A stretch of 64,000 nucleotides of DNA, taken from positions 106,690-170,689 of the forward strand of contig JAFEDI010000128.1 in NCBI GenBank assembly GCA_018241725.1, read 5' to 3'. The first letter of the stretch is position 1, and each line of letters opens with the position of its first letter. The translations under genes and the position numbers were made by a program. Below the pieces are notes generated by a model. It saw only the letters and a list, made by a program, of their open reading frames with translations. It did not search any database and was not told where the DNA came from. Below are positions 26,069-64,000 of this stretch, piece by piece. Source of the DNA: Pseudomonadota bacterium. Its GTDB lineage: Bacteria; Pseudomonadota; Gammaproteobacteria; Burkholderiales; Rhodocyclaceae.

Positions 26069-26144
26069 TCCTCGATAGCTCAGTCGGTAGAGCGCCGGAC
26101 TGTTAATCCGTAGGTCCCTGGTTCGAGCCCAGGTCGAGGAGCCA
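26069..26144 (+). tRNA. tRNA-Asn (GTT), first copy
   Basis: 76 nt including encoded CCA. Acceptor TCCTCGA/TCGAGGA, discriminator G, D-loop GCTCAGTCGGTAGAGC, anticodon loop CTGTTAA with GTT, T-loop GGTTCGAGCCC. Identical to the second copy. Confidence 0.97.
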
Positions 26145-26198
26145 GAAAAAATTCAGGTTATTTGCAGCCTTCTAGATGCAGATAACCAACCCGTCAGA

Positions 26199-26274
26199 TC
26201 CTCGATAGCTCAGTCGGTAGAGCGCCGGACTGTTAATCCGTAGGTCCCTGGTTCGAGCCCAGGTCGAGGAGCCA
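26199..26274 (+). tRNA. tRNA-Asn (GTT), second copy
   Basis: Identical 76-nt copy, 54 bases after the first; the spacer contains a short hairpin (GGTTAT..ATAACC) probably used in processing. It is the last core-genome gene before the genomic island; tRNA 3' ends are common targets for tyrosine recombinases, but no second copy of its 3' end is found in the window. Confidence 0.97.
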
Positions 26275-53501: not shown

Positions 53502-54626
53502 CTACGCATCACGGTCATTCAACTCGTATCCCGTACTCCGCCCGCCCCCGGCCATCTTCCTGAGCACTCCGCGGGCCAGCAGATCGTTGATGTCCCGCAG
53601 CGCCGTATCCGCCGAACACTTGGCAATGGCCGCCCACTTGCTGCTGGTGAGTTTTCCTTCGAAGCCATCCAGCAACCGATTGAGCACCTTCACCTGCCGC
53701 TCGTTGAACGGCGTGGCTGCCCAGCGCAGCCAGAACCAGGCCTTGATCAGCACGGCATCGAGTGTGTGCTGGGCCTGATCCACCGCACGATGCAGGCTCT
53801 CCTGGAACCAGACCAGCCACGCCGTGACGTCCAGCGATCCCTTCTGAGTGCGTTCGAGAATCTCGTAGTAGGCCTTCCGGTCCCGCTGGATCTGCGCCGA
53901 CAGGCTGTAGAAGCGCTGGGGGCTGCCGTCGGCTCGGGCAAGCAGCAGGTCACCGACGGCGCGGGCGATCCGTCCATTGCCATCGTCGAAGGGGTGCAAC
54001 GTGACGAACCAGAGATGTCCGAGGCCTGCCTTGATCAGCGGCGGCTCGCCGGAGTCGGTATTTAGCCAGTCCAGGAATCTCGCCGTTTCTGAAGGAAGTT
54101 GCTCTGCAGGCGGCGCCTCGAAGTGGACCTTCTGCCGCCCCATCGCTCCGGAGATCACCTGCATCGGTCCGTTGGTGTCACCCCGCCAGCCCGCCACCTT
54201 GATCCGCGTCATCCCCGAATACCCCGTCGGAAACAGCGCCGCATGCCAGCCGAACAGGCGTTCCGCGGTCATCAGCTGCGCCGAGTTGGCCGTTGCATCC
54301 AGCACCATCTCGACCACGCCTTCGACGTGGCGATCGACGGGCGCCAGGGCGCCGACGTCCACGCCCAGCCGACGGGCGATGCTCGAACGGACGGAGGCGA
54401 CATTCAGGCGTTCCCCCTCGATCTCACTGGTCTTGACGACATCGTCGGTGAGCGCAAGCAGACTGGCTTGATCGCGGGTCGCGGCCCCCACGTCGGCGAG
54501 ACGCCCCAGAAGCATGCCCTGCGCCCGACTGACGTCAGCCAGACGGCCTGCCAGCGCTGTGAGGTCGTAACGCCAGCAGGGCCAATCCGGCGCCTGCCAG
54601 ATGTAGAGGTAATCGTCGTGATTCAT
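53502..54626 (-). CDS. Fic-domain AMP transferase (class II)
   Basis: 374 residues from ATG 54626 (MNHDDYLYIWQAP). Inhibitory motif TSEIEGERL (about 66-74) on the N-terminal side, active motif HPFDDGNGRIAR (211-222) intact, and a C-terminal winged-helix-type part (DINDLLARGVLRKMAGGGRSTGYEL). Likely AMPylates or otherwise nucleotidylates target proteins when derepressed. DUF4172/Fic_N arrangement is common in chromosomal islands. No antitoxin gene beside it, as expected for a self-inhibited class. Confidence 0.92.
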   Translation of the reverse strand: MNHDDYLYIWQAPDWPCWRYDLTALAGRLADVSRAQGMLLGRLADVGAATRDQASLLALTDDVVKTSEIEGERLNVASVRSSIARRLGVDVGALAPVDRHVEGVVEMVLDATANSAQLMTAERLFGWHAALFPTGYSGMTRIKVAGWRGDTNGPMQVISGAMGRQKVHFEAPPAEQLPSETARFLDWLNTDSGEPPLIKAGLGHLWFVTLHPFDDGNGRIARAVGDLLLARADGSPQRFYSLSAQIQRDRKAYYEILERTQKGSLDVTAWLVWFQESLHRAVDQAQHTLDAVLIKAWFWLRWAATPFNERQVKVLNRLLDGFEGKLTSSKWAAIAKCSADTALRDINDLLARGVLRKMAGGGRSTGYELNDRDA

Positions 54627-55040
54627 GCGGCGATTATGTGTGGCTTTCACCGCATGGACAAGACAATCACCGCATAGACTGCGGCGATTGGCGCCTGCAT
54701 TATCCGCATGGATGATGGATCAGGGCAGGGTGTCGCTGTGGCGACATCCCCCTTCCTTCGTACGTCTGGCCCTGCCCGCTTCTGAAAATCCGGCTTAGTG
54801 GCACATCTCACTAGGCTAGAGCAGGCCCGGCATTACAACGCGATGGCAAGCATGACATGCACACGTACGACATTTGATGTCGCCTTCGCGACGTAAGGTA
54901 CGAGATCAACGCATGCCCTCAAAGTCACCACCATCGAAAAAATCGACAAATTTCATGTGAAAAACTCCACTCCATATCAAGAATTTGCCATATATCATGA
55001 AAAAATAATTTATTATGAATTTGTACTCTTAAACAAAAGT
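54627..55040. promoter_or_regulatory. Divergent intergenic region with AT-rich promoter stretch
   Basis: Upstream of fic and of the riboswitch. GGGTGTCGC-TGT-GCGACATCCC hairpin at about 54728-54753. From 54935 the sequence turns strongly AT-rich (TTGCCATATATCATG, TAATTTATTATGAAT) and probably holds the promoter of the riboswitch transcript; exact boxes cannot be set. Confidence 0.4.
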
Positions 55041-55160
55041 ACGATCAAAAATTGGCAAACGGGGTGAGAGCCCAGGACGCAAAGCCACGGGTCCTACTCG
55101 CTGAGCGCGAGAGGATGGCTGGGTTGCACCGCTAAGCAGTCTGCTGCGGTCACAGTTTTC
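55041..55160 (+). promoter_or_regulatory. GEMM-I (cyclic-di-GMP class I) riboswitch with terminator
   Basis: The conserved core is GGCAAAC (55054-55060), P1b stem GGGT-GAGA-GCCC with a GNRA tetraloop, GGACGCAAAGCC (55075-55086), then the P2 arm with CTCGC-TGAGC-GCGAG and GCC/GGC closing, and GGGTTGC at the 3' side. Positions matching Vc2 G20 (55054), A47 (55081) and the 3' C (about 55127) are G, A and C, which favours c-di-GMP over cGAMP. P1 is not obvious. A hairpin ACCGC-x2-AGCA-GTC-TGCT-GCGGT (55128-55150) followed by CACAGTTTT overlaps the aptamer 3' side; binding could therefore prevent termination (ON), which is inference. Confidence 0.87.
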
Positions 55161-55303
55161 CCGCCTTCCCATAGCAATGCAGTAGCCAGAGAGTTCTCTG
55201 GCACGTTCTCGCGACCATCCCCGCAAATTAACTAGACACGTTGGGGGCATCAAAGCCGAATAGTCGGTCACGGTTCACTAACGCCGGTACTCGAGGGAAA
55301 TCA

Positions 55304-55516
55304 ATGCTTCTTGCGATCATGGTTGTTCTAGCGATTTTTGGACTCCTTCTACTATTCGGGGTTATCGCCACTCTCGTCGAAATGATAATAGGCTTAGCCC
55401 TGCTTGCGGGCGTCGTAGCTCTCACTATCACATTCCCCTATGTAATGATTCCACTAATTTTATTCATCTACTTCGTCGGCCATAAAAACAAAAAATCGGA
55501 ACTACGGAAGAACTAA
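55304..55516 (+). CDS. Small two-helix membrane protein
   Basis: 70 residues from ATG 55304 (MLLAIMVVLAIFGLLLLFGV) with GAGGG upstream. Two hydrophobic helices (about 1-30 and 32-60) with a short charged tail KNKKSELRKN. A TTG start at 55241 is not supported. First gene after the riboswitch and 7 bases before the first dynamin gene, so it is part of that operon; a membrane anchor or toxin-like role is possible. Confidence 0.7.
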   Translation: MLLAIMVVLAIFGLLLLFGVIATLVEMIIGLALLAGVVALTITFPYVMIPLILFIYFVGHKNKKSELRKN

Positions 55517-55523
55517 ACCAATT

Positions 55524-57752
55524 ATGCAAAAGCATCTTGAAAAAGCCTCCTTCGAAGACCCGACGGAAATATATGACAAAATTATTGAGTCTATAGGCAA
55601 CTCCATCGAGTCCATAACACGGGCCCCCATTACGTCGGATATCGATATAAACATCGCACAGGAAAGGAGCAAAGCTCTCGACCTTCTTAGCAGATACAAA
55701 TCAAGTATTTCCCAGAGCCTTGAAGATCTGAAGCGCGTATCCGAATGGGAGGTATTCACCATTGCGATGTATGGTGAAACCAATGCGGGCAAATCCACGA
55801 TCATAGAGACCCTGAGAATTCTATTAGGAGAGCCGCTCAAGCTTGAGTCTCAGGAAAAGTTCCGGCAGAAGGCGAGAAGCATCCAATTCGATGCAAATCA
55901 CATCGAGTCATTGCAAAGTCAGATGCAGCAGGCCTCCGCGCAGAAACTTGTAAAAGAACAGGAGTTGCTTACGCTGGGCCAACAGCAGACGAGTACTCAA
56001 GCCGGCCTGCAGCAAGCTATCGAACAGCAACAGGCTCTTGTCCTACACAGAAAAAGGACACTCGGCTTTTGGAAGAGGATCGTGCACTGGTTCAAGAAGC
56101 TTGAGGAGGAGGTTCAGCTAACGCTACTTGCAGAGCAGTTGAAAAAAATTATAGCGGAGCATCAAGGCTCAATACGTGCGCTGCAATCCAGCATTGAGTC
56201 CTCGAAAAAGCAAATAGAGAGTTACCAGCATGAACTCGCCCTAATTGGCAGGAAAATTGAAGAACTGACACCCTACCAAGATGGCGAGATTATCGGCACT
56301 GGCCGTTCCGACTTTACTCTGAAATCCCAGAGCTATCATTTCGAGGTGCACGGCCAGAAGGTTGCCCTAATCGACGTGCCAGGCATCGAGGGAGACGAGA
56401 AGAAAGTTAGTGCAGCAATCGACGAAGCGATCAAGAAAGCTCATGCAGTGTTCTACATCACTCGCAAGCCATCTCCGCCCAACAAGGGCGAAGCAGGTCA
56501 CCCCGGAACGGTAGAGAAGATTCGCCAGCACCTAGGTAACCAGACCGAAGTTTGGGCCATTTACAACAAGGGCATCACCAATCCTATGGCCCTACAGGCG
56601 CCAAATCTAATCAACGCAGGGGAGGCCGACAGCCTAGGCGATCTAGAAAAGGAATTGCGCTCTCAACTCGGCGAAAGCTACCAAGGCTGCATCAACCTTA
56701 GCGCGTTACCAGCTTTCTATGCATCCAGCGACTGCATCCTTCCAACCAGTCCGCACTATAGAAGCCAGAAGAAGTTCCTAGCGGGCATGGGCGTGCAAGA
56801 GCTACAGGAAAAGAGCAACTTCGCATCCTTCTTGAACTTCGTCAGCCAGAACCTTTGTCGCAACCACAAGGAAAAAATCGATAAATCGAACAAGCGGAAG
56901 ATTCGAGCGATCATCACGGATGGCCTGCAGATGCTTGAGGGAATGATCAACACATTCTCCACCGCTAAGATGAATCTCGGAAAGCAGCATCAATCCATCT
57001 CATGTGAATTGGACAACCTCGAAGACAGCGTTGCACGTCGCATCAAGAGCCGTTGCCGCGACAGGCTGTCACAGGCCAAGACCAATAAACGCCAACTTAT
57101 TTATTCGGACATTGAAAAAGACATCAGCAACGATGATTTCAAGCAAATATTGAAGCGACGTATCGACCAACTCAAGGATGAGCTTGTAGCATCGCTTCAG
57201 GAATCACTTCACACCGAAGTCGGTTGCTTCGAGGTAGAGATTAAGGAAGTGGTTACGCGCTTTCTAAAGAATGCCGATGAAATTCTGGAGATCAATATCA
57301 ACCGGCAATTCGGCACAAAGAGCAGTTTCACCCTCAATTTCAAGATGGATAGCGGCATCAACACACTGGGGCTGCTGTCATCTCTAGGAGGTGCAGCCGG
57401 ACTAATTTGGACAGCCTTTTTAGCCTCCAACCCAGCTGGGTGGACTGTTGCCGTGGTGCTGGGCGCGGTCACCCTACTATTCAGTTTCGCTAAATCTGTG
57501 TGGGGCTTCTTCAGTTCATCGTACAAGATGGAACAGCAACGCAAGTCGGCGGACGAGAATCTTGAAAATGTATTCGAGAATATTGAGAGGACTTTCGAAA
57601 AACGCCTGTCCGAGGTCGGGACAGAGGTTTCGAAAAGCATGACGCAGATCAAGGAGCAGCTCTCTGCCCCCCTACACTCTGTGCATGGGACCTTGCATGC
57701 ACTGCAGATGGCAAGCAAAGACATCCACCAAATTGCATTGAAATTTGCGTGA
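55524..57752 (+). CDS. Dynamin-like GTPase 1 (LeoBC-like)
   Basis: 742 residues. G1 GETNAGKST (84-92), G3 DVPGIEG (284), G4 NKGI (348). A long coiled coil (about 130-260) is inserted between G1 and G3 with several Gln-rich helices. Near the C-terminus a hydrophobic hairpin (GLIWTAFLASNPAGW, VVLGAVTLLF; about 615-660) looks membrane-inserting. These are features of bacterial dynamin-like proteins that remodel or breach membranes; the pair resembles LeoBC/LeoA of the Eleos anti-phage system. Clearly lower GC than the core genome. Confidence 0.82.
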   Translation: MQKHLEKASFEDPTEIYDKIIESIGNSIESITRAPITSDIDINIAQERSKALDLLSRYKSSISQSLEDLKRVSEWEVFTIAMYGETNAGKSTIIETLRILLGEPLKLESQEKFRQKARSIQFDANHIESLQSQMQQASAQKLVKEQELLTLGQQQTSTQAGLQQAIEQQQALVLHRKRTLGFWKRIVHWFKKLEEEVQLTLLAEQLKKIIAEHQGSIRALQSSIESSKKQIESYQHELALIGRKIEELTPYQDGEIIGTGRSDFTLKSQSYHFEVHGQKVALIDVPGIEGDEKKVSAAIDEAIKKAHAVFYITRKPSPPNKGEAGHPGTVEKIRQHLGNQTEVWAIYNKGITNPMALQAPNLINAGEADSLGDLEKELRSQLGESYQGCINLSALPAFYASSDCILPTSPHYRSQKKFLAGMGVQELQEKSNFASFLNFVSQNLCRNHKEKIDKSNKRKIRAIITDGLQMLEGMINTFSTAKMNLGKQHQSISCELDNLEDSVARRIKSRCRDRLSQAKTNKRQLIYSDIEKDISNDDFKQILKRRIDQLKDELVASLQESLHTEVGCFEVEIKEVVTRFLKNADEILEININRQFGTKSSFTLNFKMDSGINTLGLLSSLGGAAGLIWTAFLASNPAGWTVAVVLGAVTLLFSFAKSVWGFFSSSYKMEQQRKSADENLENVFENIERTFEKRLSEVGTEVSKSMTQIKEQLSAPLHSVHGTLHALQMASKDIHQIALKFA

Positions 57753-57761
57753 AAATCAAAA

Positions 57762-59666
57762 ATGAATGACGCTATCAAATACTTCGATCAACAAAAGCTG
57801 CAAGCCCTCAACATACTGAAAAAACTTGTAGAGTTCGTTCGAGAAGGTGATGAACTCGGGATGACGATGCACCCCGATCTCGTGCAAAAAGTGCTGAATG
57901 GACTCGATGAAGTTCAGGACGAGAAGCTCCGCGTGGCCCTAATCGGTGGCTTCTCTGAGGGCAAGACCTCGATTGCCGCCGCATGGATGGAAAAGCTGGA
58001 TAAGGCCAGCATGAAGATCAGCCATAAAGAGTCCTCCAACGAGGTCAAGATCTATGACGTAGAGGACAAGCTCCAACTCATAGACACTCCCGGCCTGTTC
58101 GGCTTCAAAGAGCAGGTCAATACGGAAACGATGGCGATCGAGAAATACAAGGACATCACAAAGCATTACGTCAGCGAGGCGCACCTCGTGCTGTATGTGA
58201 TGAACTCGACGAACTCAATCAAGCATAGCCACGCGGATGATCTCAATTGGCTTTTCCGTTCGCTGAACCTGTTACCACGTACGGTATTTGTCCTTAGTCG
58301 CTTTGACGAGGTTGCCGACGTTGCCGACGAAGTCGATTATCTTGAGAAATTTCTGGTAAAGAAGTCCTCGGTTGCTCAACGTTTGGACGAAATCCTGGAC
58401 CTATCCACCGACGAGAAGGCTAGCTTATCTATCGTCGCCGTTGCGGCCAATCCCTTCGACTTGGGTACCGAGCACTGGCTAACCAATCTCGATCAATTCA
58501 AGAGTCTGTCCCATATCGATAGGCTCCAGGAGGCCACTCGGGTCAAAATCCAGCAAAGTGGTGGCGCACTGGCTCTGGCAAACGAGGTCAAAAAGAGCAT
58601 TATTTCGGACATCATTCAGAAGCAACTGCCTCTGGCCCGAGAGGGCTTCGAGACACTCAAGGAAGAATCGCAGCGAATGAACTCAATGCTTAATGATCAG
58701 AAGCATGAGCTCAGCAAAGTGTCCAAGAAAATGAGTGATGCACGAGTCAATCTACGCGGCCGCATCGTCCGGTATTTCGAAGATTTGATCCTGCAGTGCA
58801 AGGGAGTAAGCCCAGAAACGTTTAACGAGTTTCTGCACCGGGAAATCGGAACTGAGGGGGGGCTAATCAATCAGCGTGTGCAAGAGATTTTCTCGGATGA
58901 AGTCAAGAGCATCGCTCAGGACCTGAACCGGATTCAGTTCAAGATCGATTCGGAATTCGCCCAGTTTCACAATGTAGCTCTAGCCATGGGAAAAAAGGGC
59001 CTAGACTTTCTCAGCAAGAGCAACGTCATCAATAACCAGAACGTATTAATGGTTCGCAACGGACTCAGCACGGCATCCAAGGCGCTCGGAATGGATCTGA
59101 GCGGTATGCTCAAATTCAAACCCTGGGGGGCAACCAAGCTGGCAAATGGCATCAGCGGAGCATTGTCTGTATTAGGGCTTGCGCTGGAGGTGTGGGACAG
59201 TTGGAAGCAGGAGGAGAAAAAGCTTCAGTTTCAACAAGCCATGGTCAAAATGCAGAGCAATCTGTCTAGCCAAAGCAAGGAGATTACTGATCTCATTGAG
59301 GCGCATAGCTTCAGCGAGATTTTTTTCCCCGCTTACCAAGAACTCCAAGACCATTTGCGAGACCTGAAGAGCGAACTCGATCTGATCTCGGCCAAGTATG
59401 AGGGATTCAAGCAGTGGTATTCGTCTGGCCAGGCCATCGACATAGAATTCCGCGAGATTGACCGATTGGAGCTGTCGTCCATACAGACGTCCCCCGCCGC
59501 TTCAAGCCAGCACACCGAAGCGCCGGCTCCAAGGGAGATCGTAGCGCAATCGGCACCCGCCCCTGCATCGTCCTCTGTTACTCCAACTCCGCCTAACACC
59601 GGAACTGCTCCGAAGAAGGCTGAAACAAGAAACCTATGGCAGCGCCTCTTCTCTAAGAACCTTTGA
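57762..59666 (+). CDS. Dynamin-like GTPase 2 (LeoA-like)
   Basis: 634 residues. G1 GGFSEGKTS (62-70), G3 DTPGLFG (108), G4-like SRFD (about 179). A helical stalk with LKEESQRMNSMLNDQKHEL follows; a hydrophobic stretch around LSVLGLALEVWD (near 470) may contact membrane. The tail is Pro/Ala/Ser-rich and disordered (about 570-620). Starts 9 bases after gene 1. Two different dynamin-like GTPases encoded in tandem usually act as hetero-oligomers. Whether both bind GTP equally is not known. Confidence 0.82.
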   Translation: MNDAIKYFDQQKLQALNILKKLVEFVREGDELGMTMHPDLVQKVLNGLDEVQDEKLRVALIGGFSEGKTSIAAAWMEKLDKASMKISHKESSNEVKIYDVEDKLQLIDTPGLFGFKEQVNTETMAIEKYKDITKHYVSEAHLVLYVMNSTNSIKHSHADDLNWLFRSLNLLPRTVFVLSRFDEVADVADEVDYLEKFLVKKSSVAQRLDEILDLSTDEKASLSIVAVAANPFDLGTEHWLTNLDQFKSLSHIDRLQEATRVKIQQSGGALALANEVKKSIISDIIQKQLPLAREGFETLKEESQRMNSMLNDQKHELSKVSKKMSDARVNLRGRIVRYFEDLILQCKGVSPETFNEFLHREIGTEGGLINQRVQEIFSDEVKSIAQDLNRIQFKIDSEFAQFHNVALAMGKKGLDFLSKSNVINNQNVLMVRNGLSTASKALGMDLSGMLKFKPWGATKLANGISGALSVLGLALEVWDSWKQEEKKLQFQQAMVKMQSNLSSQSKEITDLIEAHSFSEIFFPAYQELQDHLRDLKSELDLISAKYEGFKQWYSSGQAIDIEFREIDRLELSSIQTSPAASSQHTEAPAPREIVAQSAPAPASSSVTPTPPNTGTAPKKAETRNLWQRLFSKNL

Positions 59667-59823
59667 CACGATGCTGGCTTTGAAGTCATACACGGGCAGA
59701 CTGCTTCATACCGTTTTCGGATGTCTCCCCCTGGAGTTGGCTATCAAACTGTCAGGTTTTGATGGCCTAATTCAAATAAAACAGCCTCCGAAAAAATAAT
59801 ATTGATCATATTAGGACTGACGA

Positions 59824-61686
59824 ATGAACATCATGCATCAATCAAGCAAGGCGCAAGATAGGGCGCTTGGTGTCTGGTTTCAGAATATTCAACAAGGCAT
59901 GGTCAAGCTGCCTCGCTTTCAGCGTTTTGAAGCTTGGGATCGTGGCCGGATCGCGAGTTTTCTGAACACCATCATCAACAATCTACCGGTTGGAGTAACG
60001 CTGGCGCTTGAGGTGGCTGGGCTGGAAAAGTTCGAGTCTCGCTACATCGCCACCTCCGATCCCACCACACCAGGGGCTGTGACGCAGCATTTGCTGGACG
60101 GCCAACAACGGCTGACTGCATTTTGGCGGTCGATGCACAACAACTACGAGTGGGAGACGTTTTTTGTCTATCTCCCCCAGTTTGATGAGAATGACAACCA
60201 ACCAGGCTCCGATATCGAAATCCGTTGTATTCCACGCTGGGTTAACAAGCACCAACTCCGGATGCCGCGCTGGGCCGAGGATCCAGCCCAGTGTTTCAGA
60301 CGGGGCTTGATTCCAGTCTCTTTGCTCAGACCAGGAGACATCGCGACCGAGATCGACAGCTGGCTTAATGATGCGACTAAACACTTGGAACCTGATGACG
60401 CCGCCGCCGATGCATTAGCCAAGTACAAGACCTACACTGCGACGCGTGAGAAAATCAAAACAGAGATCACCACACTGCGTGAGCGTGTGACGCACTTCAA
60501 TTTGCCCTACTTGTCTTTGCCGGCCGATACTAGCAAAGATGTGGCATTGCAGGTATTTATCAACATGAATACCAACAGCAAACCCCTTTCTCTGTATGAC
60601 ATTATCGTCGCTGAGGTTGAAAGCGTGGCAGAGAGATCGCTCCACGCGCTCGAAGCAAGCCTGACGGAAAAATGCCCTACCGCAGGTCGTTACGGCAATG
60701 TATCGGACCTTATCCTTTCTACCTCAGCGTTATTGCAGGAAAAGCTGCCCAACACGCGCGGAATGATTGAGATGGATAAGAAACAGCTGCTGGACAACTG
60801 GCCGAAGCTGGAGCGTGGCCTTGAGCGGATGGCATCCTTCTTGGATCGCCAGCGCGTGTTTGATGAAGCCAGATTGCCAACTAACACCGCCTTGGCTGTG
60901 ATTGCAGCAACCTATGAGTTGATTCCTGATCACGGTGACTTTCTAGCCAAAGCAGAAAGGTTGCTACGGCGGTACCTATGGTCAGCCTTCTTTACCGACC
61001 GCTACGAGAATACTGCAGCATCGCGCGCGTTTGCTGACTTCAAAGCTCTCAAGAGCATTTTGAAAAATCCCGACTTTACCGAAAGTGACTTGGTGAGCGT
61101 GCCTGTACTGAATCGCTCTGAGTTCCCGCTGGCGGACGTGGATTCGATGATGGCAGCAGGCTGGCCTAAGGCGGCGGGCATTGAAGCTCGTGCAATTTTG
61201 GCGGTAACGACCTATCTTGGTGCGATCGACTTTGCGGACCATCAGATAGCAACTTATGAGAGCATTCAGAAGCGTGAGTACCACCATGTTTTTCCAGATG
61301 CCCTACTCGCAGAGGCAGGCATTACCAGCTACCTTGCGCTCAACTGTGCTTTGATTACTTGGAAGACCAACAGGATGATTGGTCGAAAGGACCCGTTAGA
61401 GTATCTGCAAGAACGTGTTCAATGGGCCGACGAGAACGTGGTGCGCGAGCGCTTGAAGTCTCATCTGATTTCATTCGATCTGCTCTCAAGAGCACATTAC
61501 GCAAACTTGGAAGGCGATGCGCTAAAGCACAAGCTGGTCGGTGACTTCAACAATTTCTTGCTCGATCGGGCCAAATTGGTTGTGGCCGCGATGAAATCGC
61601 TCACCGAGGGTAATACCCCCACACTCGAATCTTTGTGGGCAGAGCATCTCGCCAATACCACGGCTAACTCACAGCTTACTGTATGA
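59824..61686 (+). CDS. GmrSD-type single-chain nuclease (DUF262 + HNH)
   Basis: 620 residues. DUF262 domain with LPRFQRFEAWD (29-39) and the catalytic DGQQR (92-96); C-terminal DUF1524/HNH half with EYHHVFP (485-491) and NCALITWKTNRMIG (about 508). In GmrS/GmrD these two parts cut modified phage DNA using NTP; here they are fused, as in several type IV enzymes. Own promoter likely in the 157-base AT-rich gap upstream; ribosome-binding site AGGA nearby. Confidence 0.85.
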   Translation: MNIMHQSSKAQDRALGVWFQNIQQGMVKLPRFQRFEAWDRGRIASFLNTIINNLPVGVTLALEVAGLEKFESRYIATSDPTTPGAVTQHLLDGQQRLTAFWRSMHNNYEWETFFVYLPQFDENDNQPGSDIEIRCIPRWVNKHQLRMPRWAEDPAQCFRRGLIPVSLLRPGDIATEIDSWLNDATKHLEPDDAAADALAKYKTYTATREKIKTEITTLRERVTHFNLPYLSLPADTSKDVALQVFINMNTNSKPLSLYDIIVAEVESVAERSLHALEASLTEKCPTAGRYGNVSDLILSTSALLQEKLPNTRGMIEMDKKQLLDNWPKLERGLERMASFLDRQRVFDEARLPTNTALAVIAATYELIPDHGDFLAKAERLLRRYLWSAFFTDRYENTAASRAFADFKALKSILKNPDFTESDLVSVPVLNRSEFPLADVDSMMAAGWPKAAGIEARAILAVTTYLGAIDFADHQIATYESIQKREYHHVFPDALLAEAGITSYLALNCALITWKTNRMIGRKDPLEYLQERVQWADENVVRERLKSHLISFDLLSRAHYANLEGDALKHKLVGDFNNFLLDRAKLVVAAMKSLTEGNTPTLESLWAEHLANTTANSQLTV

Positions 61687-62551: not shown

Positions 62552-63697
62552 ATGGGCACCAACCAAATCGAAGAGGTTTTCAGCGTCGCCACCCGAAGGG
62601 ATCTCGCGGAGACCGGCGGCGGACACAACCAGAAGGGCGTTGACTTTCAGCGGGCCTGGGCCATCGAGCGTATGTTCGACCTCGAGAAGTCCGGAGCCAG
62701 CGACTTCCTCTTTCTGTTTGAATCGATCCAAGATGTCGCCGAGCTCGACTCGCCGACGACGCCCTCCGCCATTCGGATCTATCAGGTCAAAAAGAAAGAC
62801 CGCAAGGAATGGAGTTGGGCCGAGCTGACGCATCTGGTGGAGCCCGGTAAGAAGCGGAGAGCTTCGAAAAGACCTCCTCCGGACATCAAAGACAGCCCAA
62901 TCGGAAAACTGTATTCCTCGGCGTTGGCCTTCAAGGAGCTCAAATGTTCTGGGGTTTTCATCTCGAATAACGGCTGCGATTTGCCTCTTAATGGCGGCGG
63001 CAATGCCGCGACCTCCCTGCCCTGTGACCTTTCGAAGCTTGACTCGGAGCATTTGGATGCATTGACCCAAGGACTTGAAACCCTGCACAAGGCCGGAACA
63101 CTGCCAGCCAACCCTGCCTTGATTCATGTCGAAAAGATCCCCATGCATCCGGATCAGCCGACCAAGCAACTCATCGGGACCGTCGTCTTATTCCTCAACG
63201 ACCGCAGCCCAAGGCACGCAGGGCAAGCTCAAGCCTTGGTCGAGGCCTTGTTGGCCAAGGTCGGACCTTTAGGTGCAAAGACCGACTCCTGCGCAAGCTT
63301 CGAGGAGCTCAAGAAAGAACGCGGCTATTCCAAGGCCGAGTTCTCCGCTGCGCTGAGCAATCTGGAAGATGTTCCTGACTTGCTGGCGCTGCTGGAAGAC
63401 TGGCTCGACAAGCTCGAATCTGAAGGAGACATCGGATTCATGGAGAAGCTGGCGGTCCGAGTCGCGGCCTCGAAGATATTTCGTCTCCAAGTGATGAACG
63501 GAGAAGATCCTATCGCTGCGCCGCTCCTGCTGGACATCGATACTTGGCTAGATACCCACGCACCAGGCGCCTCGCTCAAAGCATTCCTCAACCAAGCCAA
63601 AGCCGATCTGGCTAGTGTCCATTCCTCGATCCGCCCTGCGGATTTCACCGCGCAGTTCTTACTTCGAGCCTTGAAAAAATGCGTGGCCCAAACCTAA
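62552..63697 (+). CDS. Cap4-type (DUF4297) dsDNA nuclease, Lamassu LmuA-like
   Basis: 381 residues. N-terminal endonuclease: GGGHNQKGVDFQRAWAIE (22-39), E57 (LFES), D61, and Q78-V-K80 (IYQVKKK), the PD-(D/E)xK residues of Cap4. No CD-NTase gene and no SAVED domain are seen, so it is not CBASS. The C-terminal 200 residues are helical. Directly followed by an SMC/ABC-type ATPase gene, the layout of Lamassu, where LmuA carries an exchangeable effector such as Cap4. The middle gene lmuC is not seen. Confidence 0.8.
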   Translation: MGTNQIEEVFSVATRRDLAETGGGHNQKGVDFQRAWAIERMFDLEKSGASDFLFLFESIQDVAELDSPTTPSAIRIYQVKKKDRKEWSWAELTHLVEPGKKRRASKRPPPDIKDSPIGKLYSSALAFKELKCSGVFISNNGCDLPLNGGGNAATSLPCDLSKLDSEHLDALTQGLETLHKAGTLPANPALIHVEKIPMHPDQPTKQLIGTVVLFLNDRSPRHAGQAQALVEALLAKVGPLGAKTDSCASFEELKKERGYSKAEFSAALSNLEDVPDLLALLEDWLDKLESEGDIGFMEKLAVRVAASKIFRLQVMNGEDPIAAPLLLDIDTWLDTHAPGASLKAFLNQAKADLASVHSSIRPADFTAQFLLRALKKCVAQT

Positions 63698-63731
63698 GAA
63701 AATTGGTCAGAAGCCTTCGGACAAAATCATA

Positions 63732-64000
63732 TGAAAAGCTTTCTCTTCGAAAGTATTTGGATGCTCTCCCGACGCGACCGGCGAGCTCGGCGAGTGGAGT
63801 TCCACGAGAAAAAGAACCTGATCTGGGGTCGAAACCACACCGGGAAGTCGAGCCTGGTCAAAACCATGTTCTTGACCGGCGCGCGTCAAGCTAGTTGTCG
63901 CCTGATTCATGCAGCTCTTTGCTGTTTATTCCCCATGGCAAGGACTACGTCTCGCTCGGGATTGAGAGTCACCACGGTGATGGGTGACCAGTCCCGGGTG
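63732..64000 (+). CDS. SMC/ABC-type ATPase, 5' end (possibly frameshifted)
   Basis: ATG 63732, 34 bases after the nuclease gene. Reads MKSFLFESIWMLSRRDRRAR and a Walker A GRNHTGKSS near residue 42, the start of a RecN/SMC-like or LmuB protein. After about residue 50 (FLTGARQ) the composition no longer fits the family, while another frame of the same DNA reads PHGKDYVSLGIESHHGDG. This suggests a frameshift, by mutation or sequence error, just after the P-loop. The gene continues beyond the window. Confidence 0.5.

What the first reader, a model, noticed from the sequence alone, without database searches (positions are those of the whole stretch)
55041..57760. Cyclic-di-GMP-type riboswitch drives a small membrane protein plus a dynamin pair
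A GEMM-I aptamer with conserved core, GNRA tetraloop and a downstream terminator hairpin sits in front of an operon made of a 70-residue two-helix membrane protein and two dynamin-like GTPases similar to LeoBC/LeoA (Eleos). Eleos and related dynamin defence genes are not generally described as ligand-gated by a riboswitch. If real, a second messenger would decide whether membrane-active GTPases are made, joining cyclic-dinucleotide signalling and phage defence at RNA level. The terminator 5' arm overlaps the aptamer 3' side, which predicts an ON switch; the G at the G20 position predicts c-di-GMP. These last two points are inference.
Basis: partly seen in the sequence, partly recalled or inferred. 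Interest (0 to 1): 0.92.

Follow-up and report, generated by a model that had tools for sequence, protein, structure and literature searches.

The report
Riboswitch ahead of dynamin-pair operon
An RNA sensor of the type that reads the bacterial signal cyclic-di-GMP sits in front of an operon for membrane-acting, dynamin-like proteins resembling a phage-defence system, and it has stayed almost unchanged between two related species, so a lifestyle signal probably decides when these proteins are made.

Summary
Rfam's c-di-GMP-I (GEMM-I) model matches 55044-55131 at 58.7 bits (gathering 35), with G20, A47, C92 and the C44-G83 pair intact. The same Fic/aptamer/ORF/LeoBC/LeoA module lies in a congener (L005, 89.4% nt). 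There the aptamer differs at 2 of 88 bases, while the other intergenic DNA differs at 104 of 509 (p = 2e-6): purifying selection on the RNA. The arrangement is local: both Leo loci found in 23 genomes of the genus have it, and none of 11 other distinct Leo pairs examined does. Direction of control, ligand binding and anti-phage function are untested. Verdict: a known riboswitch class in front of a known defence-type system, a combination I did not meet in my literature searches.

The parts
55044..55131 (+). c-di-GMP-I (GEMM-I) aptamer, RF01051
   Evidence: 58.7 bits, gathering 35; 86 of 88 bases identical in L005
55054..55054 (+). position equivalent to Vc2 G20 (ligand contact)
   Evidence: G in window and L005; numbering by a constant Rfam-to-Vc2 offset of 9
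55081..55081 (+). position equivalent to Vc2 A47 (stacks between the two guanines)
   Evidence: A in both
55127..55127 (+). position equivalent to Vc2 C92 (ligand contact)
   Evidence: C in both
55128..55150 (+). hairpin just after the aptamer, possible part of the expression platform
   Evidence: -9.2 kcal/mol, z -2.28; in L005 -8.1, z -1.72 with one pair lost; not scored as a terminator
55156..55169 (+). UUUUCCCGCCUUCC, candidate switching strand (anti-aptamer or anti-ribosome-site)
   Evidence: identical in L005; pairings seen in folds but duplex not better than shuffles
55293..55297 (+). ribosome-binding-site-like GAGGG before the 70-aa ORF
   Evidence: sequence; 16 of 17 bases of 55290-55306 identical in L005
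55304..55516 (+). 70-aa hydrophobic (membrane) ORF
   Evidence: 12 synonymous against 8 non-synonymous codon changes of 70 versus L005; no family match
55524..57752 (+). LeoBC-type dynamin-like GTPase, 742 aa
   Evidence: PADLOC LeoBC 448.6 bits; Pfam MMR_HSR1 33.3 bits over cut-off, Dynamin_N 23.2 below cut-off
57762..59666 (+). LeoA-type dynamin-like GTPase, 634 aa
   Evidence: PADLOC LeoA 523.7 bits; Pfam DLP_helical 358.1, Dynamin_N 30.7; ETEC LeoA 4aur, 216.3 bits
53502..54650 (-). Fic protein (SoFic-like), divergent from the aptamer and part of the conserved module
   Evidence: PADLOC SoFic 125.9 bits; conserved block 53509-59662

Best explanation
The element is a working c-di-GMP-I riboswitch in the 5' leader of a membrane-ORF/LeoBC/LeoA operon carried on a defence-rich genomic island. 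The aptamer, with its known ligand contacts intact, would bind c-di-GMP from the host's large diguanylate cyclase network and change how much of the operon is made. Shown: the family match, the intact contacts, strand and position, tight gene packing, and selection on the aptamer between two species. Inferred: ligand, binding, and control of the operon. The direction is open: if the extended stem 55111-55170 is repressive, ligand would turn the operon ON; if the freed UUCCC (55158-55162) masks the ribosome site, ligand would turn it OFF. The likely sense is to tie membrane-active GTPases to the sessile or danger-alert state that high c-di-GMP marks.
For: RF01051 58.7 bits and 59.9 bits in L005. 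G20, A47, C92 and C44-G83 kept in both. 2 of 88 differences in the aptamer, both in the P3 loop, against 104 of 509 in other intergenic DNA (Fisher p 2.0e-6) and 66 of 276 fourfold sites in LeoBC. Same strand, 172 nt before an operon with gaps of 7 and 9 nt. 2 of 2 Leo loci in 23 genomes of the genus carry it. 68 GGDEF matches in the genome, 67 over cut-off.
Against: No scoring terminator or sigma-70 promoter. The competing anti-aptamer duplex is reached by 1264 of 2000 shuffles (window) and 362 of 2000 (L005). The whole leader does not fold better than shuffles (z -0.71). The ribosome-site pairing is about 0.38 in the window and has no clear counterpart in L005. The association is seen in two congeneric genomes only, 0 of 11 other Leo pairs. 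The aptamer scores lower than the two host copies (58.7 against 75.4 and 74.6).
Confidence: 0.7

Rival explanations
1. The riboswitch works, but the operon is a membrane-remodelling or vesicle system tuned to biofilm life, not phage defence.
For: ETEC leo mutants release about half the normal vesicle cargo (PMC4159319, passages). c-di-GMP-I sites elsewhere in the order precede surface and signalling genes such as FliE, PilZ, EAL and pilin.
Against: Neighbourhood rich in defence-type genes: SoFic, GmrSD_N, LmuA, type I restriction; [quoted passage not shown]
Confidence: 0.35
2. The aptamer senses another cyclic dinucleotide, such as 3',3'-cGAMP, linking the operon to a different signal.
For: cGAMP-sensing RNAs share the fold, and the selectivity position does not decide alone (PMC9262584, passages).
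Against: G at position 20 and C at 92, the c-di-GMP arrangement; 67 GGDEF domains in the genome.
Confidence: 0.1
3. The riboswitch mainly controls the 70-aa membrane ORF, a unit that landed in front of a Leo operon with its own internal promoter.
For: The ORF and the aptamer occur together and only in this pair of genomes: of 10 other Leo loci tested none has a hydrophobic ORF adjacent to LeoBC; the ORF is found in 2 of 101 genomes of the family.
Against: 7-nt gap to LeoBC and no sigma-70-like site in 54650-55600; the ORF was not found apart from the Leo genes in those 101 genomes.
Confidence: 0.12
4. The aptamer is an inherited remnant without regulatory effect.
For: No clear expression platform; lower score than the two host copies.
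Against: Conservation far above the flanking intergenic DNA.
Confidence: 0.06

Closest known systems
c-di-GMP-I riboswitch, RF01051 (Vc2, Cd1)
   Same: Covariance-model match over gathering, ligand contacts, GNRA loop
   Different: Target is a Leo-type operon; the platform is not recognisable as in Cd1
pilM-type c-GAMP ON switch (PMC9262584, passages)
   Same: In the window an alternative fold pairs the C92 equivalent with a downstream base, as the pilM terminator does
   Different: G, not A, at position 20; no U-run after the alternative stem; in L005 the same fold leaves C92 unpaired
Eleos/Leo dynamin system (PADLOC LeoA, LeoBC; ETEC leoABC)
   Same: Adjacent LeoBC and LeoA with strong profile scores
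   Different: Extra 70-aa membrane ORF and riboswitch in front; LeoA with a C-terminal tail absent from the six other LeoA sequences aligned outside this genus
E. coli RdcA (YjdA)/RdcB, a dynamin-like GTPase that activates the cyclase DgcE (PMC6510439, passages)
   Same: Dynamin-like GTPase tied to c-di-GMP signalling
   Different: There the GTPase acts on a cyclase; here c-di-GMP would act on the GTPase genes. Sequence relation not tested

Membership tests
c-di-GMP-I riboswitch (RF01051) | covariance-model score over the curated threshold | tested here: met
   58.7 against 35 bits
c-di-GMP-I riboswitch (RF01051) | ligand contacts G20, A47, C92 and interhelical pair C44-G83 | tested here: met
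   contacts named in passages of PMC4744006 and PMC9049102; the numbers C44-G83 are recalled
c-di-GMP-I riboswitch (RF01051) | GNRA-type loop on the first hairpin | tested here: met
   GAGA, 55066-55069
c-di-GMP-I riboswitch (RF01051) | expression platform that changes with aptamer folding | tested here: inconclusive
   alternative folds exist but are not better than shuffles
c-di-GMP-I riboswitch (RF01051) | binds c-di-GMP | not testable with these tools
   needs in-line probing
c-GAMP-selective GEMM-I variant | A instead of G at position 20 (recalled) | tested here: not met
   G at 55054 in both species
Eleos/Leo system | adjacent LeoBC (or LeoB and LeoC) and LeoA genes | tested here: met
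   PADLOC LeoBC 448.6 and LeoA 523.7 bits, 9 nt apart
Eleos/Leo system | protects against phages | not testable with these tools
   no experiment

The most novel reading that the evidence does not exclude
A defence-type dynamin operon on a genomic island has recruited the host's c-di-GMP signalling through an RNA sensor, so that a lifestyle or danger second messenger sets its expression directly at the mRNA; the 70-aa membrane protein is a riboswitch-linked partner of the dynamins, acquired together with the aptamer.
Probability: 0.4. Interest if true: 0.82.

Novelty: new variant of a known kind. Interest (0 to 1): 0.62.

Why it matters
The second-messenger links to phage defence that I know act through proteins (CBASS and relatives; recalled). 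Here a well-understood RNA sensor would set the dose of membrane-active GTPases, which makes a direct and cheap test possible of whether the biofilm or danger signal c-di-GMP primes or restrains a defence-type system. In V. cholerae, exogenous peptidoglycan such as lysed cells release raises c-di-GMP and leads to phage-protective biofilms (PMC11726461, passages), so such wiring would make sense. It would also tell in which condition Leo dynamins are made, a clue to what they do.

Tried and rejected
Intrinsic terminator and ON switch: 0 sites in the scan; the hairpin 55128-55150 is kept when the aptamer is enforced; five bases separate it from UUUU. Anti-aptamer stem (55113-55123 with 55160-55169): seen in the free folds of both species, but the duplex is reached by 1264 of 2000 shuffles in the window and 362 of 2000 in L005, and better partners of the same strand lie elsewhere in the leader; kept only as a hypothesis. 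Ribosome-site masking: about 0.38 probability in the window with the aptamer enforced, indistinct in L005. The hairpin at 55185-55202 (z -4.79) loses two pairs in L005 (read from the alignment) and no U-run follows it; rejected as a platform.

The leader had no match in phages and one 42-base match at 85.7% in an Aeromonas record in plasmids, not followed. The membrane ORF had no match in plasmids. A LeoA-profile hit in G204 was too distant by BLAST and is not counted. The LeoBC-profile search of 369 class genomes listed 151 with a match, nearly all weak GTPase hits; only the strong loci G454 and G729 were followed, and G729 was weak by BLAST. The LeoBC profile found only apolipoprotein chains among solved structures, discarded. 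Contig stretches L044-L049 were not used.

Papers: searches. For papers I saw listings and passages, none in full. Listings were partial (20 of 1,597; 15 of 23; 15 of 10,529; 10 of 42; 8 of 14). No listed title or abstract start described a riboswitch on a dynamin or Leo operon. The one paper holding all three terms concerns an island inserted into a cobalamin riboswitch (PMC12409358, passages). Most subscription papers are not held, so absence in print is not established.

Full report
What is there. A scan of the whole window against Rfam gives three matches over threshold: two tRNA-Asn genes and RF01051, c-di-GMP-I, at 55044-55131 on the + strand with 58.7 bits (gathering 35, E 6.4e-9). At a permissive E-value the only other match listed in 54000-60000 is a Caenorhabditis snoRNA model far below its threshold. 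The assembly (5.93 Mb, 151 contigs) holds three RF01051 hits, of 75.4, 74.6 and 58.7 bits. One of the other two lies before an ORF that reads like FliE (one FliE match among the 32 ORFs), the other before an ORF that looks by eye like a secreted protease (not confirmed by a search).

Aptamer integrity. 21 of 22 model pairs are canonical, the exception being a G-A at 55061/55074, and the first loop is GAGA. With a constant offset of 9 between Rfam and Vc2 numbering, G20 is 55054, A47 is 55081, C92 is 55127 and C44-G83 is 55078-55118; all are kept in the window and in L005. That G20, A47 and C92 contact the ligand is from passages of PMC4744006 and PMC9049102; the numbers C44-G83, on which the offset at the 3' side rests, are recalled.

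Genes. After 172 nt comes a 70-aa hydrophobic ORF (55304-55516), then LeoBC (55524-57752) and LeoA (57762-59666), with gaps of 7 and 9 nt. PADLOC gives LeoBC 448.6 and LeoA 523.7 bits. Pfam gives DLP_helical 358.1 bits and Dynamin_N over cut-off for LeoA; for LeoBC, MMR_HSR1 is over cut-off and Dynamin_N below it. ETEC LeoA (4aur, 216.3 bits) is the only close solved relative of LeoA; a GTPase Der chain matches weakly. The membrane ORF has no family match.

Conservation. One scan of the genome-contig collection with LeoBC returned three relatives. One, L005 (JAFEDJ010000013.1, MAG SZAS-77), carries the module at 89.4% nt from window 53509 to 59662 with the aptamer at 59.9 bits. By position it is the same-genus genome G1198. 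The aptamer differs at 2 of 88 bases, 55105 and 55106, both in the P3 loop. The other intergenic DNA (54651-55032 and 55173-55303, substitutions only) differs at 104 of 509, Fisher p = 2.0e-6. The 41 nt after the aptamer differ at 3 (p = 0.025). Fourfold sites differ at 66 of 276 in LeoBC, 62 of 248 in LeoA and 8 of 36 in the membrane ORF. The membrane ORF shows 12 synonymous and 8 non-synonymous codon differences of 70. This comparison is the strongest evidence that the RNA is under selection; it rests on two species. For scale, a 1.7-kb probe left of the tRNA is 97% identical and one host GEMM locus 92% identical between the two genomes.

How widespread. LeoA is in 2 of 23 genomes of the genus, and both have the aptamer; RF01051 as such is in 17 of 23 and in 95 of 250 genomes sampled from the order, 93 over the cut-off (with stricter filters). 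A LeoBC search found 1 of 399 order genomes, the window's own. Outside the genus I examined 11 distinct Leo pairs: L006, L007, L038, L040, L041, L042, L053, L055, L056, L057, L058. None has RF01051 at gathering; six of them were also searched at E up to 1 without RF01051. A near-copy (L039), four weak or partial loci (L043, L052, L094, L095) and L054, whose contig begins at LeoA, gave no hit either. Of the 9 plasmid records with a LeoBC match I fetched four; three others are Raoultella or Klebsiella records with the same match statistics as L038, and two Enterococcus faecium records were not examined. A hydrophobic ORF directly before LeoBC was sought in 12 loci: it is there in the window and L005, and in none of the other ten (L006, L007, L038, L040, L041, L042, L089-L092; start approximated in the last four); L007 has an unrelated-looking 92-aa ORF ending about 118 nt away.

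What GEMM-I does in these bacteria. I took the first ORF after 32 GEMM-I sites: the 30 loci L059-L088 returned, which are high-scoring ones out of those listed, plus the two other sites of this genome (ORFs chosen by a simple rule). Pfam matched DUF1631 in 12, Peptidase_S8 in 2 and FliE, EAL, PilZ, response regulator, type IV pilin and others once each, 12 families in all and no dynamin. In PADLOC at 1e-10 the only match was 'subtilase' in 2. A Leo operon is thus an unusual target. The genome has 68 GGDEF matches, 67 over the cut-off, so the ligand should be available.

Mechanism. The scan finds none (0 found, 0.8 expected). The hairpin at 55128-55150 (-9.2 kcal/mol, z -2.28) starts just after the C92 equivalent, coexists with the enforced aptamer, and is separated from UUUU by five bases. 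The transcript to 55175 folds better without the aptamer than with it (-45.0 against -38.0 kcal/mol; L005 -48.3 against -37.4), through an extended stem of 55113-55123 with 55160-55169. In the window that fold also pairs C92 with G55155, which recalls pilM, where the terminator fold takes the ligand-pairing C (PMC9262584, passages); in L005 the same fold leaves C92 unpaired. No U-run follows the stem, and the duplex is reached by 1264 of 2000 shuffles (window) and 362 of 2000 (L005). With the aptamer enforced, 55158-55162 pairs with the ribosome site 55295-55299 at about 0.38 in the window, without a clear counterpart in L005. Closely related aptamers act as ON or OFF switches according to the platform (PMC9262584, title and passages), so I leave the direction open.

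Function. The surroundings hold a Fic (SoFic-like) gene divergent from the aptamer, a GmrSD_N protein, a Lamassu LmuA homologue, type I restriction genes and two integrases. In L005 the module ends about 135 bp before a 50-bp exact copy of the tRNA-Asn 3' end, which suggests an attachment site, and G1198 keeps the DNA left of the tRNA on the same contig. [quoted passage not shown] but ETEC leoABC is described as aiding vesicle release (PMC4159319, passages). Defence is plausible, not shown. c-di-GMP rises in V. cholerae exposed to exogenous peptidoglycan, with phage-protective biofilm (PMC11726461, passages).

Verdict. A real c-di-GMP-I aptamer, conserved under selection, in front of a Leo-type dynamin operon, restricted as far as seen to one genus. 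The RNA class and the protein system are both known; the pairing was not met in the searches listed. Interest 0.62: surprising and easily tested, held back by two-species support, an unclear platform and an unproven defence role.

Noticed in passing
26069-26274 and L005:9278-9327: Two tandem tRNA-Asn genes; a 50-bp exact copy of the tRNA 3' end lies about 135 bp after LeoA in L005, suggesting that the module's islands end at an attachment site for tRNA-Asn.
   Followed up: partly
62552-64000: Lamassu LmuA homologue (432.6 bits) followed by the start of an ORF with an ATP-binding-like N-terminus, cut by the window and contig end.
   Followed up: no
59824-61686: GmrSD_N-domain protein (72.6 bits) directly after the Leo operon; it is absent from the conserved block shared with L005.
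   Followed up: no
57762-59666 (C-terminus): LeoA of the window and L005 has a proline-rich tail ending in a tryptophan/leucine-containing stretch that the six other LeoA sequences aligned lack.
   Followed up: no
L059-L088 (GEMM-I loci): 12 of 32 first ORFs after GEMM-I sites match DUF1631, the commonest target in this sample; its function is not known to me.
   Followed up: no
55185-55202: Strong hairpin in the leader (z -4.79) that loses two pairs in L005 (alignment).
   Followed up: partly
L005:1076-2827: ORF left of the module in L005 that looks by eye like a family-B DNA polymerase of a mobile element; not searched.
   Followed up: no
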